60,936 nucleotides of DNA, from positions 1-60,936 of IMG/VR virus record IMGVR_UViG_3300028592_000010; one strand, 5' to 3'. Positions 3,501-22,057 of the stretch are shown here, one piece after another; the stretch's first letter is position 1; every line of letters starts with the position of its first letter. Origin of the DNA: a virus. The position numbers were made by a program, and so were the translations under genes. The notes under the pieces are model-generated. The model was not told the DNA's origin. It did no database searches and worked only from the letters and a program-made list of their open reading frames with translations.

Positions 3501-3783
3501 CCGGGTCGAGCACTTCCGGCGGCGCCGCTACGCCTACTGCCCGCACGAGGGCGTGGCGCGGTTCACGGTCGTCGACTACTGGCTGGCCTACCCGCCGCTG
3601 TACTGGTGCACCGGGTGCGGCTGGTCCTGGGAGCCCGGCGACAAGCCAGTGCCGCCCGAGCCCGGCCAGGGGGCCGTCGCGGCCCGGCGGGCCCACTCCC
3701 TCCTCCCGCCGCTGGACGCGGCGGCGTGGCGCAAGTTCATTCGGCAGATCAGTGAGGACTCAGAGCAGGAGGCAGCAGCGTGA
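3487..3783 (+). CDS. small zinc-ribbon-like protein
   Basis: This encodes 98 residues with a Cys-His pair near the start (YCPHEGVARF) and CTGCGWSWEPGD in the middle, the layout of a short zinc ribbon. ATG 3487 is preferred; GTG 3478 is in frame. It overlaps the VWA stop and the ParB-like start on either side, so it belongs to the same operon. Its function is unknown. Confidence 0.65.
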   Translation: MSSPDRVEHFRRRRYAYCPHEGVARFTVVDYWLAYPPLYWCTGCGWSWEPGDKPVPPEPGQGAVAARRAHSLLPPLDAAAWRKFIRQISEDSEQEAAA

Positions 3784-4466
3784 CCGACCAGCAGGCCAGC
3801 GACCGGGTGACCCACGACCTCAGCGTGGAGTACGTCGACATCGACACGGTGGCCGAGCACCCGGACAACCCCCGGCGCGGCAACACGCAGGTGATCGTTG
3901 AGTCGCTGCGCCGCACCGGTCAGTACCGGCCCCTGATCGTTTCGGCTGCGACGGGCTACGTGGTGGCCGGCAACCACACGCTGCGCGCGGCGCGGCTGCT
4001 CAACTGGGACCGGATCGCGGTCACCTGGCTGCACGGCCTGTCCGAGGAGGCAGAGCACCGCATCCTGGCCGTGGACAACCGGGCTGCCGACCTCGGCGAC
4101 TACGACACCGAGGCACTGATCGCCCTGCTGGACAACCTCGGCGAACTGGAGGGCACCGGCTACTCGGTGGACGACCTGGAGACCTTGCAGGCCCTGGCGG
4201 GCCGCGAGGTCACGTTCGCGGCGGGCGACACCGACGCGCACTACTCGGGCACCGACGCCGAGCGGGCCGAGCGGGCCGAACAGATCGGCAACTACCAGCC
4301 GCTCAAGGCGCAGGGTCTGGCCGAGGTCATCCTGGTGCTCACCGAGGCCAAGAAGACGCAGATGATCGACTGGCTCCAGGTGCTCCGCGCCAAGTGGGGC
4401 GACCAGATGACCAACGGGGAGTTGGTCTACGCGGCCGTGGCTCGCGCGGTGGACGCCGAACAGTGA
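3780..4466 (+). CDS. ParB-like N-terminal domain protein
   Basis: The first 100 residues match the ParB/Srx domain: VEYVDIDTVAEHPDNPRRG, then VVAGNHTLRAARLL and a VDNRAADLG turn. In phages this domain often sits beside DNA-modification genes, and here the next three genes are a modification set, so it may present or nick target DNA. The GTG start overlaps the previous stop. No separate DNA-binding HTH is obvious in the C-terminal 80 residues. Confidence 0.85.
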   Translation: MTDQQASDRVTHDLSVEYVDIDTVAEHPDNPRRGNTQVIVESLRRTGQYRPLIVSAATGYVVAGNHTLRAARLLNWDRIAVTWLHGLSEEAEHRILAVDNRAADLGDYDTEALIALLDNLGELEGTGYSVDDLETLQALAGREVTFAAGDTDAHYSGTDAERAERAEQIGNYQPLKAQGLAEVILVLTEAKKTQMIDWLQVLRAKWGDQMTNGELVYAAVARAVDAEQ

Positions 4467-5410
4467 CCTCGTACGAGATCGGAGAGCGGGCGGGGCGCAT
4501 CGCCAAGCTGTGGACCCCGGGCGTGATCGACGACTACGCCCGGTTCCACTGGCTCGCCCTGGAGACTGGCGACGTGGACCCGGTCTACCCGGTGCTGCGC
4601 AAGCTGGAGATGGGCGTCAGCGACCTGGTGTGGCTGTCCTTCCTGCACGTCGCCTACTACGACCTCGGCTCGGCCCTGCGCGCCTTCGCCCGGCTGTCGT
4701 GGCGCCCCACCGAGGAGGTCCCCAACGCGGTGCTGCACTACCCGTGCGGCACCGAGCGGCGGGCGCACCGCGACCCGAGCCAGTTGCTGCGCCACCTGGA
4801 ATCCCTGCGGGCGCTGGCCGATCACTTCCAGGGCTTGCACCGTTTTGTGACAAGCGCCACCAGCTACGGGGACCTGTTCGGCAGGGTCATCTCCATCTGG
4901 GGTAACGGCCGGTGGGCCGCCTACAAGACCTGTGAGTTGCTGGCCTACGCGTTGGACCGGCCCGAGTGGGAGCCCACCGACATGGGGCACGCCCACTCCA
5001 CCGGCCCCCGCAAGGGGCTCGCGCTGATCTACGGCGGGCGCCTGCCCGAGGGCAACGGGCCCGCCGCCATTCACACCCTCAACACCTTGTCGGGCTGGCT
5101 CGTCAACGAGTTGGGCCGCCGCGACCTGGTTGCCAGTCAGGCGACCGCCGAGACCACCCTGTGCGACTTCCACTCCCTGGCTGGGGGCCGCTACTACGTG
5201 GGGCACGACATCGACCAGATGGGCATGCAGATCCGGCGCGGGCTGGAGACGGAGCGCCTGCACTACGAGGAGGGCCAGTCCGCCGCCCTGCGGTTCCTGC
5301 TCGACGCCAACCAGCGTGCGAGCGCGACGTTCGCCCATTGGGGCAACGACATCGACAAGGGCCGCCGACAGGTCTACAAGTTGACGGGAGAGATCCTTGA
5401 TCCACGTTGA
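4463..5410 (+). CDS. amino acid:DNA transferase-like protein (aGPT-PPlase family)
   Basis: I assign this 315-residue helical protein to the alpha-glutamyl/putrescinyl-thymine pyrophosphorylase group, which has a DNA-glycosylase-like fold and transfers an amine to a phosphorylated 5-hydroxymethyl pyrimidine in DNA. Visible features are a WLSFLHVAYYDLGSALRAF helix, a hairpin-like IWGNGRWAAYKTCELL segment and conserved CDFHSLAGGRYYVGHDID. The assignment rests partly on context: an FAD enzyme and a P-loop kinase follow directly, each overlapping. GTG 4463 overlaps the ParB-like stop. The fold call is a recognition, not a measured match. Confidence 0.65.
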   Translation: MTSYEIGERAGRIAKLWTPGVIDDYARFHWLALETGDVDPVYPVLRKLEMGVSDLVWLSFLHVAYYDLGSALRAFARLSWRPTEEVPNAVLHYPCGTERRAHRDPSQLLRHLESLRALADHFQGLHRFVTSATSYGDLFGRVISIWGNGRWAAYKTCELLAYALDRPEWEPTDMGHAHSTGPRKGLALIYGGRLPEGNGPAAIHTLNTLSGWLVNELGRRDLVASQATAETTLCDFHSLAGGRYYVGHDIDQMGMQIRRGLETERLHYEEGQSAALRFLLDANQRASATFAHWGNDIDKGRRQVYKLTGEILDPR

Positions 5411-6314
5411 GGGGATGGGCTGGTTCGGCGCGGTGACCGCGCTCGCGCTGGAGCGGGCCGGCATCGAGTTCACCTGGTCCGACATCGACTCGCCCACCCA
5501 GGCCTGGAAGGCCTCCACCGGCATCGTCTACCCGGCCGGAGACGACCGCACCGAGCGGGAGCGCCTGTCCTGGACCCGGTGGTGGCTGAGTGACGACTGG
5601 CTGCCCGACCACACGGTGCGGCCCGTCACCTACGGCTTCACCCACAAGGCGCCACCGCATGGCGGCAAGTACGAGTGGGCCCGCTGGTCCTACGTGCCCG
5701 AGGTGAAGATCGCCGCCAAGCACGCCTTCGCGGTCGATGTGCAGGCCATCGTGGTCGAGGCCCGTTCCCGCTTCGCCGAGCGGCGCTGCGAGTACGTGGA
5801 CCCGGCGCGGTCGAAGATTGTCGCTCACGGCGCGCGCCGAGCGGTCGGCTGGGTGTGGGGCTGGAGCCGCAAGGTCAACCTGCGCTGGCCCGGTGGGGTT
5901 GAGGCGGACGGCATGAGCCTGTACGGCAAGGTCCACCGGTTCGGCCTCTGCTACGCCTACCCGGTGGGGGCCCAGCCGGGCTGGTGGTGGGCCGGCTCGG
6001 CCCTGGTCAACGAGAGGCGCCCCCGGGAGCGCGACGGGCGCGAGTTGGCCGACTACTACGAGCGCTGGCGCTCCGACTTCGCCCGGCTCTACCCCGGAGT
6101 GGACGTGGTGGAGTCCGGTCATGAGCCCATCCGGCAGGGCTGGCGGCCCAAGCCAAGCGAGAGCGATCCGGCGCTGCTGGGACTCACCGACACGCGGTGC
6201 GTCTTCCCGGCCCTGTGGCACTCGGGCGTGCGCTGGGCGCCCTCGTTGGTGGAGGGAGCGGTGCAGTGGGCAACTCGCGTGACCTCTTCTACGTCATCGG
6301 CCCTCCAGGCGTAG
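5397..6314 (+). CDS. FAD-dependent oxidoreductase/lyase of the modification pathway
   Basis: TTG 5397 follows GGGAGAG and gives a protein starting with a Rossmann dinucleotide site (VEGMGWFG, then an acidic residue ending the second strand, SDID). STGIVYPAGD and a C-terminal CVFPALWHSGVRWAPS resemble D-amino acid oxidase-like flavoproteins. Flavin-dependent lyases are known to trim amino acids attached to 5-hydroxymethyl-dU in phage DNA, and this gene sits between the transferase-like and kinase genes. It ends in TAG and overlaps the kinase by 49 bases. Confidence 0.75.
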   Translation: MIHVEGMGWFGAVTALALERAGIEFTWSDIDSPTQAWKASTGIVYPAGDDRTERERLSWTRWWLSDDWLPDHTVRPVTYGFTHKAPPHGGKYEWARWSYVPEVKIAAKHAFAVDVQAIVVEARSRFAERRCEYVDPARSKIVAHGARRAVGWVWGWSRKVNLRWPGGVEADGMSLYGKVHRFGLCYAYPVGAQPGWWWAGSALVNERRPRERDGRELADYYERWRSDFARLYPGVDVVESGHEPIRQGWRPKPSESDPALLGLTDTRCVFPALWHSGVRWAPSLVEGAVQWATRVTSSTSSALQA

Positions 6315-6838
6315 GCAAGTCCTCCCTGATGGCCGCCCTCACGGTGCGCTGCCACCGCTGGCCGAACGCCAAGCCGTTCCGCTACGACCTGCTCCGGGGC
6401 CCCTCGGGCTACGAGTTCGTCGAGTTGGGCGGTCAGCGCATCGGCGGGTTCCCCGGCACGGACGGCATGTCGATGTCGGTCCAGCCCCGGGTGGAGGAGT
6501 GGCTGCACCAGACCCGGGTGCCGCTCGTCCTCGGTGAGGGTGACCGCCTGGGCAACACCAAGTTCTTTGAGGCGGCGGTGCACGCAGGGTGGCGCCTGAA
6601 CGTTGTCGCCCTGATGGCCGACCGTAAAGAGTTGGATCGGCGCTGCCGGGAGCGCGGCTCGGAACAGTCCGAGACGTGGCGCAAGGGCCGGTTCACGAAG
6701 GTGGCCAACGTGACCAACTGGCTGACCACGGCCCATCCCGGCAGCGTCCGGCTGGTCACGGCCGACCGAACCCCGGGCACGCTGGTCGCGGCCCTGCGAC
6801 CGAGCTACCCGGACATCTTCGCCCTGCTGGAGGACTGA
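6266..6838 (+). CDS. P-loop nucleotide kinase, candidate 5-hydroxymethyl-pyrimidine DNA kinase
   Basis: GTG 6266 lies eight bases after GGAGGGA. Residues 12-20 are a clear Walker A loop, GPPGVGKSS. An acidic VLGEGDRLG strand could serve as Walker B, and an ELDRRCRERG lid helix is followed by a TADRTPG segment. At 190 residues it is the size of small nucleoside kinases. Next to a transferase-like protein and an FAD enzyme, it probably phosphorylates the hydroxymethyl base in DNA to activate it for amine transfer. An ordinary nucleotide kinase role cannot be excluded. Confidence 0.8.
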   Translation: MGNSRDLFYVIGPPGVGKSSLMAALTVRCHRWPNAKPFRYDLLRGPSGYEFVELGGQRIGGFPGTDGMSMSVQPRVEEWLHQTRVPLVLGEGDRLGNTKFFEAAVHAGWRLNVVALMADRKELDRRCRERGSEQSETWRKGRFTKVANVTNWLTTAHPGSVRLVTADRTPGTLVAALRPSYPDIFALLED

Positions 6839-9073: not shown

Positions 9074-9468
9074 CCGACTGGGAAGCGCTGACCGCGCTCC
9101 AGATCATTGACCGGCTGCGCGACACGATCGTGGCCATGGGCCAGTACGTGGCCGGCCTGGAGTCCGAGGCACTGGAGACCGAACGCTCGGTGGCGTTCTG
9201 GACCGAGGAGGCCCGGCGCTACGCGGGCAACGCCGACTACTGGCGGGCGCGGACCACCGAGGCGGAGCGGGTCATACAGGCCGCGCGCGCCATGCCGGGG
9301 CACGAGCCGACCGAGGGGGAGCCCATGTGGTGCTGCCGCCTCCAGGACGCCCTGGCGACCTACGATCAGTGGCGGAAGGGGGGTAGCGATGATCGAGTTG
9401 CGAGTGCGGAGCCGACTTCGCCAGGAGGACCTGCTGCCCAAGACCGGCAAGGTGCTGGGCCCGGCTGA
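9070..9468 (+). CDS. helical protein, 3' end uncertain
   Basis: GTG 9070 starts a protein with a long amphipathic helix (ALETERSVAFWTEEARRY). The final 30 residues overlap the dioxygenase gene by 80 bases and look like out-of-frame sequence. A six-G run just before 9384 is followed by TAG in another frame, so the natural end may be near 9386 if that run is one base short. Confidence 0.5.
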   Translation: MTDWEALTALQIIDRLRDTIVAMGQYVAGLESEALETERSVAFWTEEARRYAGNADYWRARTTEAERVIQAARAMPGHEPTEGEPMWCCRLQDALATYDQWRKGGSDDRVASAEPTSPGGPAAQDRQGAGPG

Positions 9469-10270
9469 CTACGACGTGCTGCTCACCGGCCCCGCCAAGG
9501 TGCTCAAGCCGGACGGCAAGCCACTGTGCGTCTACCTTCCCGGCGCCCTCCGCGAATGGTCGCAGAGTGACACCATCTACGCCATTTTGCACGGGCTACG
9601 CACACACACCACCAACAACCGGGGCATGAGCGGCGGCGCAGGCGTCGACACCTCCCCCAGCGGCAAGCGCTACGCCCAGACCACCGCGTCCACCATCATC
9701 GGCGCCTTCGACCCGAACAGTTACCGCCGCTACTGCCGCCTCACCGCCTGGACCGGGCGCAACCTGCCGCAGTGGGAGGCGCTCCAGCCGTTCCTCGCCG
9801 CCATCGCCGAGCGGATGGCCGAGCACGTTCCCGACCGGCACGGGGCCCAGATGGCCGAGGTCATGCGCACCCAGCCCGAGTGGGTCGTGCCGGGCACCCC
9901 GTTCACCACGGTCACGGTCAACAACACCTACCCGACCGGGATGCACACCGACAAGGGCGACCTCGATGCCGGGTTCTCCACCCTCGCCACACTGCGCCGA
10001 GGCGGCGCGTATACGGGCGGCAACCTGATGTTCCCCGAGTACCGGTGCGCCGTGGACATGCGCGACGGAGACCTGCTGCTCATGGACGCCCACGAGTGGC
10101 ACGCCAACGCCGACATCGTCTGTGCCTGCGGAAACTCCATCCGGGCGATCTGTCCGACGTGCGGGGCGGAGCGCATCTCGGTGGTGAGTTACTTCCGCAC
10201 CGACATGGTCAACTGCAAGGACGCGGCCACCGAGGAACGGCGGGCCGCCGAGTGGTGGGCGAAGCGGTGA
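9389..10270 (+). CDS. TET/JBP-family 2-oxoglutarate/Fe(II) dioxygenase
   Basis: The ATG follows GGAAGGGGGG. The protein has 293 residues and a double-stranded beta-helix signature: VNNTYPTGMHTDKGD supplies HxD (H186, D188), DAHEWHAN supplies the distal His (H235 or H238), and ERISVVSYFRTD supplies the Arg near 270 that binds 2-oxoglutarate. This pattern is typical of phage TET/JBP enzymes that oxidise the methyl group of thymine or 5-methylcytosine in DNA. Between the distal His and the Arg lies a CACGN...CPTCG insertion, a likely zinc knuckle. It could supply the hydroxymethyl base used by the kinase/transferase set at 4463-6838. Confidence 0.85.
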   Translation: MIELRVRSRLRQEDLLPKTGKVLGPADYDVLLTGPAKVLKPDGKPLCVYLPGALREWSQSDTIYAILHGLRTHTTNNRGMSGGAGVDTSPSGKRYAQTTASTIIGAFDPNSYRRYCRLTAWTGRNLPQWEALQPFLAAIAERMAEHVPDRHGAQMAEVMRTQPEWVVPGTPFTTVTVNNTYPTGMHTDKGDLDAGFSTLATLRRGGAYTGGNLMFPEYRCAVDMRDGDLLLMDAHEWHANADIVCACGNSIRAICPTCGAERISVVSYFRTDMVNCKDAATEERRAAEWWAKR

Positions 10271-17728: not shown

Positions 17729-17744
17729 GTCCATGACGGGAACG

Positions 17745-17815
17745 GGACCGCACGGGGAGTCGAACCCCGCCTAGGCGCTTTAGAGGCGCTTGTGCTGCCG
17801 ACACACCCTGCGGTC
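17745..17815 (-). tRNA. suppressor tRNA, anticodon CUA (reads UAG)
   Basis: Read on the minus strand, GACCGCA pairs with TGCGGTC over seven bases. The D stem is GTGT/GCAC with GG in the loop. The anticodon arm is AGCGC-CTCTAAA-GCGCC with U33 followed by CTA, and the T arm is CGGGG-TTCGACT-CCCCG. The anticodon (17781-17783) is CUA. Weak points are an A-C mismatch closing the anticodon stem, G at position 8 and a four-base variable loop. CCA is not encoded. Charging specificity cannot be seen. Confidence 0.7.
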
Positions 17816-18087: not shown

Positions 18088-18218
18088 GGGCCAACTTGGG
18101 GCCCTCCGAGAAATTGCACCTCGCCTTCGCCCCCCGAAGGGCGCGTGCTCTGGTTACACCTGAGGGCCATGGGGGCCGGTCTGGGCCCGGGGCAAGCTAG
18201 CCTCCCAGACCGGCACCG

Positions 18219-18294
18219 AAACGGGAGTCGGATTCGAACCGACGACCTCCAGCTTATGAGGCTGGCGAGCACAACCGAACTGCTCCATCCCGTC
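18219..18294 (-). tRNA. tRNA-Met (CAU)
   Basis: All arms are present on the minus strand: acceptor GACGGGA/TCCCGTT (first pair G-U), D arm GAGC..GCTC, anticodon arm CCAGC-CTCATAA-GCTGG, variable AGGTC, and T arm GTCGG-TTCGAAT-CCGAC. The anticodon is CAU. The regular first pair argues for an elongator rather than initiator tRNA. CCA is not encoded. Confidence 0.93.
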
Positions 18295-21943: not shown

Positions 21944-21986
21944 GGCCGTGCTCCCTTCAGTGCTCCCGCCCGGTAGCGGGGAGACG

Positions 21987-22057
21987 TGGACCCGGCGGGA
22001 TTTGAACCCGCATCCTCCGGCCGATCGCCGGTGCTCTACCAGTGAGCTACGTGGCCC
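21987..22057 (-). tRNA. degenerate tRNA, anticodon not readable
   Basis: The minus strand shows a canonical D arm (GCTC-ACTGGTA-GAGC) and T arm (GCGGG-TTCAAAT-CCCGC). The acceptor pairs only partly (GGGCC with GGTCC). The anticodon stem CCGGC/GCCGG leaves a five-base loop, GATCG; forcing seven bases gives no U33. It is probably a pseudogene or a tRNA with a deleted anticodon loop. Confidence 0.5.

What the first reader, a model, noticed from the sequence alone, without database searches (positions are those of the whole stretch)
9389..10270. TET/JBP dioxygenase as likely source of the hydroxymethyl base
The HxD..H..R pattern and YPTGMHTDKGD loop mark a TET/JBP enzyme. No dUMP/dCMP hydroxymethylase and no cytosine methyltransferase are visible in the genome. 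Oxidation of thymine in DNA (JBP-like) would be the first step for the kinase/transferase set at 4463-6838, unlike phages that start from a hydroxymethylated nucleotide pool. An internal CxC..CxxC zinc knuckle between the distal His and the Arg is unusual.
Basis: partly seen in the sequence, partly recalled or inferred. Interest (0 to 1): 0.8.

Follow-up and report, generated by a model that had tools for sequence, protein, structure and literature searches.

The report
Phage TET enzyme starting thymine hypermodification
This virus of (probably) actinobacteria carries a TET/JBP-type oxygenase that most likely puts the first hydroxyl group on bases already in its DNA, probably thymine, so that neighbouring enzymes can attach and trim an amino acid, instead of making a modified nucleotide beforehand as the classical hypermodified phages do.

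Summary
The ORF at 9389-10270 matches Pfam Tet_JBP well over the cut-off. Its AlphaFold model is closest to TET2, NgTet1, CMD1 and CcTet. The catalytic H186, D188, H238 and R262 are invariant in 42 of 42 relatives. The Cys4 knuckle is real but is an optional insertion, absent from many relatives that keep the active site.

No thymidylate-synthase-fold hydroxymethylase, ThyX or C5-cytosine methyltransferase is found in the record, nor in five complete genomes of cultured actinophages that share the TET / amino acid:DNA transferase (ADDT) / kinase set. Across IMG/VR, ADDT phages with a TET never show a hydroxymethylase; most ADDT phages without one do (M6, ViI and W-14 show a hydroxymethylase and no TET). 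Two distant TET subfamilies are interchanged within the same module.

New here: the ORF at 5397-6314 is a DAO/glycine-oxidase-fold flavoenzyme, which gives a full candidate route: T, 5hmU, phosphorylated 5hmU, aminoacyl-T, trimmed base.

Thymine (rather than 5mC) as substrate is inferred, not shown. A five-gene thymidine hypermodification system with a TET-like gene was already proposed, untested, for Rhodococcus phage Tonitrus (PMC11955845). This is therefore a TET-initiated variant of a known kind of system.

The parts
9389..10270 (+). TET/JBP-family 2OG-Fe(II) dioxygenase, 293 aa
   Evidence: PF12851 60.5 bits; phrog_24024 2e-47; model closest to TET2/NgTet1
9944..9952 (+). HxD iron-binding motif (H186, D188)
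   Evidence: invariant in 42/42 relatives
10100..10102 (+). distal iron-binding H238
   Evidence: invariant in 42/42 relatives
10121..10162 (+). Cys4 knuckle C245xC247...C255xxC258, optional insertion in the H-R loop
   Evidence: full Cys4 in 9/25, other Cys/His forms in 6/25, none in 10/25
10172..10174 (+). 2-oxoglutarate-binding R262
   Evidence: invariant in 42/42 relatives
3780..4466 (+). ParB-like protein, constant neighbour of the module
   Evidence: phrog_723 4e-38; next to TET/ADDT in most loci
4463..5410 (+). ADDT, amino acid:DNA transferase (ORF open from 4394)
   Evidence: PF18724 51.7 bits, cut-off 26.2; same Pfam family as M6 gp51
5397..6314 (+). DAO/glycine-oxidase-fold flavoenzyme, predicted to trim the attached amino acid
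   Evidence: no Pfam hit, but N-terminal GMGWFG; model pLDDT 86.8 matches D-amino-acid oxidase, IdaA, glycine oxidase, MSOX, MnmC at Z 20-22; proteins in the same slot in relatives are DAO PF01266
6197..6838 (+). P-loop kinase, Ploopntkinase3 (true start perhaps 6266), predicted kinase of the hydroxymethyl base in DNA
   Evidence: PF18751 81.2 bits, cut-off 27; Walker A GPPGVGKSS

Best explanation
The TET/JBP enzyme hydroxylates the 5-methyl group of thymine in finished phage DNA, giving 5-hydroxymethyluracil (JBP-like chemistry). The P-loop kinase phosphorylates that hydroxyl, ADDT displaces the phosphate with an amino acid, and the flavoenzyme at 5397-6314 oxidatively trims it (if the amino acid is glycine, to 5-aminomethyl-uracil, by analogy with the DAO domain of MnmC). 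The ParB-like protein may load or guide the set on DNA. The likely benefit is protection from host nucleases. Shown here: family membership, conserved active site, linkage, absence of other hydroxymethyl sources. Inferred: thymine as substrate, order of steps, identity of the amino acid, benefit.
For: PF12851 and fold, catalytic residues invariant. ADDT PF18724 is the family of M6 gp51, from a phage whose thymines are hypermodified (PMC6449724, PMC9476957). No PF00303 in 34 records, most of them with TET relatives, none in 22 further TET+ADDT records, none in five complete cultured actinophage genomes. PF00303 present in 3 of 5 ADDT records without a TET over the cut-off, and in M6, ViI and W-14, which have no TET. 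No ThyX in 28 records. C5-MTase absent from the window and nearly all relatives. Gene maps of about 70 loci show the ParB-ADDT-(flavoenzyme)-kinase-TET set, whole or in part. Two TET subfamilies are mixed on the ADDT tree, so a TET is kept while its type changes. No DNA polymerase among the Pfam matches of 76 window ORFs, in line with modification after replication.
Against: No activity data. The kinase is Ploopntkinase3, not the HMUDK families (PF18748, PF18723) that M6 carries. A C5-MTase lies 4-6 kb from the TET in two related records, L050 and L055, and far away in one jumbo phage. Many IMG/VR records are fragments, so absences there are weak. The base-contact residues cannot tell T from 5mC with the data on hand.
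Confidence: 0.68

Rival explanations
1. The TET oxidises 5-methylcytosine made by a host or unrecognised methyltransferase; the kinase, ADDT and flavoenzyme then build a hypermodified cytosine.
For: The TETs with solved structures found here were solved with 5mC or its oxidised forms in DNA. Phage TETs shown to be active work on 5mC next to a phage C5-MTase (Burke 2021, as described in PMC12730594; paper itself not held). C5-MTase in L050 and L055.
Against: No C5-MTase in the window, in 33 of 34 records of the first set (the one hit is weak, 23.5 bits) or in the five complete cultured genomes. ADDT is known from thymine hypermodification.
Confidence: 0.18
2. The hydroxymethyl base comes from a nucleotide-pool hydroxymethylase outside the recovered sequence or of an unknown family, and the TET acts at a later or separate step.
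For: The record is not proven complete; the tailoring slot varies among relatives.
Against: Five complete cultured genomes with the same set also lack PF00303 and ThyX. PF00303 is easily found where TET is absent, so the search works.
Confidence: 0.1
3. The enzyme oxidises a small molecule, RNA or protein and has nothing to do with DNA modification.
For: The wider 2OG-Fe(II) superfamily has such members (established knowledge).
Against: Fold closest to DNA-acting TETs; constant linkage to ADDT, kinase or TET-associated glycosyltransferase.
Confidence: 0.04

Closest known systems
Thymidine hypermodification cassettes of Pseudomonas phage M6, Salmonella phage ViI and Delftia phage W-14
   Same: For M6: ADDT family, a P-loop kinase, tailoring enzymes; modification of a 5-hydroxymethyl base in DNA.
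   Different: All three carry a thymidylate-synthase-fold hydroxymethylase and no TET. M6 uses the kinase families HMUDK_HMUD1 and HMUDK_hel, and radical SAM, PLP enzyme and Nmad5 for tailoring. The window has TET, Ploopntkinase3 and a flavoenzyme, and no polymerase was recognised.
Five-gene thymidine hypermodification set of Rhodococcus phage Tonitrus (PMC11955845)
   Same: ParB, TET-like protein, aGPT-Pplase2/ADDT, kinase and the homologue of ORF 5397-6314.
   Different: The TET belongs to a distant subfamily (profile E about 1e-10 against 1e-140 for the window). The gene order differs. The fifth gene was 'hypothetical' there; here it is assigned a DAO-like flavoenzyme fold.
Phage TET with C5-methyltransferase and glycosyltransferase (cytosine hypermodification, Burke 2021, as described in PMC12730594)
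   Same: A phage TET/JBP oxygenase that starts base hypermodification in DNA.
   Different: No C5-MTase; partners are ADDT and kinase rather than glycosyltransferases.
Kinetoplastid JBP1/JBP2
   Same: TET/JBP family; proposed hydroxylation of thymine in DNA.
   Different: No J-binding domain was sought or seen; the next steps are phosphorylation and amino-acid transfer, not glucosylation. No sequence comparison with JBP was made.

Membership tests
TET/JBP dioxygenases (PF12851) | profile match over the curated cut-off | tested here: met
   60.5 bits against 34.9
TET/JBP dioxygenases (PF12851) | HxD...H iron triad and 2OG-binding Arg | tested here: met
   H186, D188, H238, R262 invariant in 42/42
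TET/JBP dioxygenases (PF12851) | double-stranded beta-helix fold closest to TETs | tested here: met
   TET2 Z 21.8 over 257 residues; AlkB-type 14.8 and below
TET/JBP dioxygenases (PF12851) | hydroxylates a 5-methylpyrimidine in DNA | not testable with these tools
   needs an enzyme assay
JBP-type thymine hydroxylase | substrate is thymine in DNA | not testable with these tools
   inferred from missing C5-MTase and from partners
Thymidine hypermodification systems (M6/ViI type) | ADDT family transferase | tested here: met
   PF18724 in the window and in M6 gp51
Thymidine hypermodification systems (M6/ViI type) | thymidylate-synthase-fold hydroxymethylase | tested here: not met
   no PF00303 in the record; present in M6, ViI, W-14
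Thymidine hypermodification systems (M6/ViI type) | 5-hmdU DNA kinase of the HMUDK families | tested here: not met
   kinase is PF18751; no PF18748 or PF18723 among 76 window ORFs
Phage cytosine hypermodification with TET (Burke type) | C5-cytosine methyltransferase in the phage | tested here: not met
   no PF00145 in the record
DAO/glycine-oxidase flavoenzymes (ORF 5397-6314) | DAO fold with N-terminal dinucleotide-binding motif | tested here: met
   Z 20-22 to DAAO, IdaA, glycine oxidase, MnmC; GMGWFG at the N terminus; no Pfam match of its own

The most novel reading that the evidence does not exclude
Phages have a JBP-like thymine hydroxylase that replaces the nucleotide-pool hydroxymethylase and starts amino-acid hypermodification entirely on finished DNA; in sister phages the same TET type is paired with a TET-associated glycosyltransferase, which would give a phage counterpart of base J.
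Probability: 0.5. Interest if true: 0.72.

Novelty: new variant of a known kind. Interest (0 to 1): 0.56.

Why it matters
If the enzyme acts on thymine it would be a prokaryotic counterpart of the kinetoplastid thymine hydroxylases. It would also show a second, post-replicative way to hypermodified thymine that needs neither a modified dNTP pool nor, perhaps, a phage polymerase. Complete genomes of cultured phages on Gordonia, Mycobacterium smegmatis, Microbacterium and Rhodococcus carry the set, so it can be tested at once by mass spectrometry of phage DNA. A small (293 aa) thymine-specific TET would be a useful reagent.

Tried and rejected
Rejected: the zinc knuckle as a mark of substrate choice (it is optional). 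Rejected: a hydroxymethylase or ThyX hidden in the record (six-frame searches with ringing controls). PHROG names 'queuine tRNA-ribosyltransferase' (phrog_6059) and 'terminase small subunit' (phrog_800) for the TET and the kinase: rejected as inherited misnomers, because the same proteins match Tet_JBP and P-loop kinase models. Led nowhere: sequence search of the PDB with the TET profile gave no hit at E up to 1; NCBIfam gave none for the TET. Reading T against 5mC preference from residues D191, Y268 and R270 was considered, but the needed sequence facts (TET2, NgTet1, JBP) were not in the held papers and the two TET subfamilies differ at D191 and R270, so nothing is claimed. Iyer 2013, Lee 2018, Lee 2022 and Burke 2021 are not held.

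Full report
WHAT IS THERE. The ORF 9389-10270 (+ strand, 293 aa, ATG) matches Pfam Tet_JBP at 60.5 bits against a cut-off of 34.9. In PHROGs it matches phrog_24024 (unknown function) and, more weakly, phrog_6059, whose name 'queuine tRNA-ribosyltransferase' seems inherited. From an alignment of 25 sequences the AF2 model reaches pLDDT 87.5. Its best PDB matches are TET2 (Z 21.8, 257 residues, rmsd 3.5), NgTet1 (18.9), CMD1 (18.8) and CcTet (17.6); AlkB-type enzymes start at 14.8. H186, D188, H238 and R262 are invariant in 42 of 42 relatives.

THE KNUCKLE. In 25 non-redundant sequences the loop is a 23-residue Cys4 form in 9, a longer Cys3 plus His-type form in 6, and has no such cluster in 10, some with only 13 residues between H and R. 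It is a removable insertion and not part of catalysis. Zinc binding is inferred from the pattern only.

THE MODULE. Upstream on the same strand lie a ParB-like gene (3780-4466), ADDT (4463-5410, PF18724), ORF 5397-6314 and a P-loop kinase (6197-6838, PF18751). HMMs made from these genes, run over the fetched loci, show the set ParB-ADDT-(flavoenzyme)-kinase-TET again and again, mostly within about 4-8 kb, on one strand, with changes of order. It is also at the left end of complete genomes of cultured phages: Gordonia phage CloverMinnie, Rhodococcus phage Tonitrus, Mycobacterium phages Phelemich and LilMcDreamy, Microbacterium phage Kozie. There the TET is annotated 'oxidoreductase', 'Tet-like J-binding protein', 'queuine tRNA-ribosyltransferase' or 'hypothetical'; it scores 17.7-32.2 bits on Tet_JBP, under the cut-off but in the right place. 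In Kozie no ParB-like gene was picked up by the HMM. Close relatives of the TET also occur in contigs of Haloechinothrix, Actinomadura and Streptomyces genomes, which suggests an actinobacterial host.

THE FIFTH ENZYME. ORF 5397-6314 has no Pfam match. It begins with a dinucleotide-binding motif, and its model (pLDDT 86.8) matches D-amino-acid oxidase, iminodiacetate oxidase, glycine oxidase, monomeric sarcosine oxidase and MnmC at Z 20-22. In relatives the same slot holds clear DAO proteins (Kozie gp3, L004, L012, L050), and others have a PLP enzyme (L006) or an amidoligase-like protein (L011). So the slot looks like one for trimming the attached amino acid. An oxidase that cuts an N-substituted glycine, as MnmC does in tRNA, would turn glycinyl-thymine into 5-aminomethyl-uracil; this last point is inference.

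WHERE DOES THE HYDROXYMETHYL GROUP COME FROM? Six-frame searches with family profiles found no PF00303 (thymidylate synthase and dUMP/dCMP hydroxymethylases), no PF02511 (ThyX) and no PF00145 (C5-MTase) in the window. PF00303 was absent from all 34 records of the first set, from 22 further ADDT records that hold a TET and from the five complete cultured actinophages. It was present in three of five ADDT records without a TET over the cut-off (two of the five have a partial match of 17.8 bits, one of them with a hydroxymethylase), and in M6, ViI and W-14, which have no TET. A Fisher test gives about 0.001 for the metagenomic records and 7e-6 with the three isolates (counts approximate, rows are related, many records are fragments). 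M6 gp51 is ADDT by Pfam, which ties the window's transferase to a phage with established thymine hypermodification (PMC6449724, PMC9476957); ADDT in ViI and W-14 was not tested here. On a tree of ADDT the two distant TET subfamilies are mixed: phages swap the type of TET but keep one. These results fit a TET that takes the place of the hydroxymethylase. One TET-bearing phage outside this group, Caulobacter phage Cr30, does carry PF00303; no ADDT was sought there.

THYMINE OR 5mC? This remains inference. For thymine: no C5-MTase in the window or the five complete genomes, and the partners. Against: a C5-MTase 4-6 kb from the TET in L050 and L055, and the fact that phage TETs with shown activity act on 5mC (Burke 2021 as described in PMC12730594). 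The kinase is also of another family than the M6 5hmdU kinase, so its substrate is not established either. Some window-type TETs lack ADDT and kinase and instead neighbour a TET-associated glycosyltransferase, again with no C5-MTase found.

WHAT IS KNOWN. Daspit et al. [quoted passage not shown] From memory, and not checkable here, Iyer et al. 2013 predicted hypermodification systems that start from TET/JBP-made hydroxymethyl bases. So the idea is not new. What this study adds: the window's member with a different TET subfamily, the exclusion pattern against hydroxymethylases, the mixing of TET types within one module, the flavoenzyme assignment, and the finding that the knuckle is optional.

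VERDICT. Substrate and chemistry need an enzyme assay or mass spectrometry, and cultured phages for that exist.

Noticed in passing
L026:1019-1906, L028:854-1639, L030:623-1507, L038:9123-9995 (weaker: L027:8723-9598): Window-type TETs without ADDT or kinase neighbour a TET-associated glycosyltransferase (PF20691), and no C5-methyltransferase is found in their records: a possible phage counterpart of base J. Some of these records are short fragments.
   Followed up: partly
L050 (contig bases 42-215), L055:1-579: A C5-cytosine methyltransferase lies 4-6 kb upstream of the TET-ADDT-kinase set in two related phages, so 5mC cannot be ruled out as substrate there.
   Followed up: partly
L073:13996-17398 (327-kb record): A jumbo-phage record carries two TET copies, each next to ParB-like genes, plus ADDT, flavoenzyme and kinase and a distant C5-methyltransferase.
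   Followed up: no
window 6197-6838 and 9389-10270: PHROG family names mislead: phrog_800 'terminase small subunit' matches the kinase and phrog_6059 'queuine tRNA-ribosyltransferase' matches the TET. The wrong names recur in phage annotations (M6 gp54, LilMcDreamy gp02 and gp05).
   Followed up: partly
window 17744-17815 (-), 18218-18294 (-), 21986-22056 (-): ARAGORN calls three tRNAs on the minus strand: one labelled tRNA-Pyl (anticodon CTA, not seen by Rfam), tRNA-Met, and tRNA-Asp with the unusual anticodon ATC.
   Followed up: no
L049:2656-3756: In LilMcDreamy the tailoring slot between ADDT and kinase holds an aspartyl/asparaginyl beta-hydroxylase-like protein (PF05118) instead of a flavoenzyme.
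   Followed up: no
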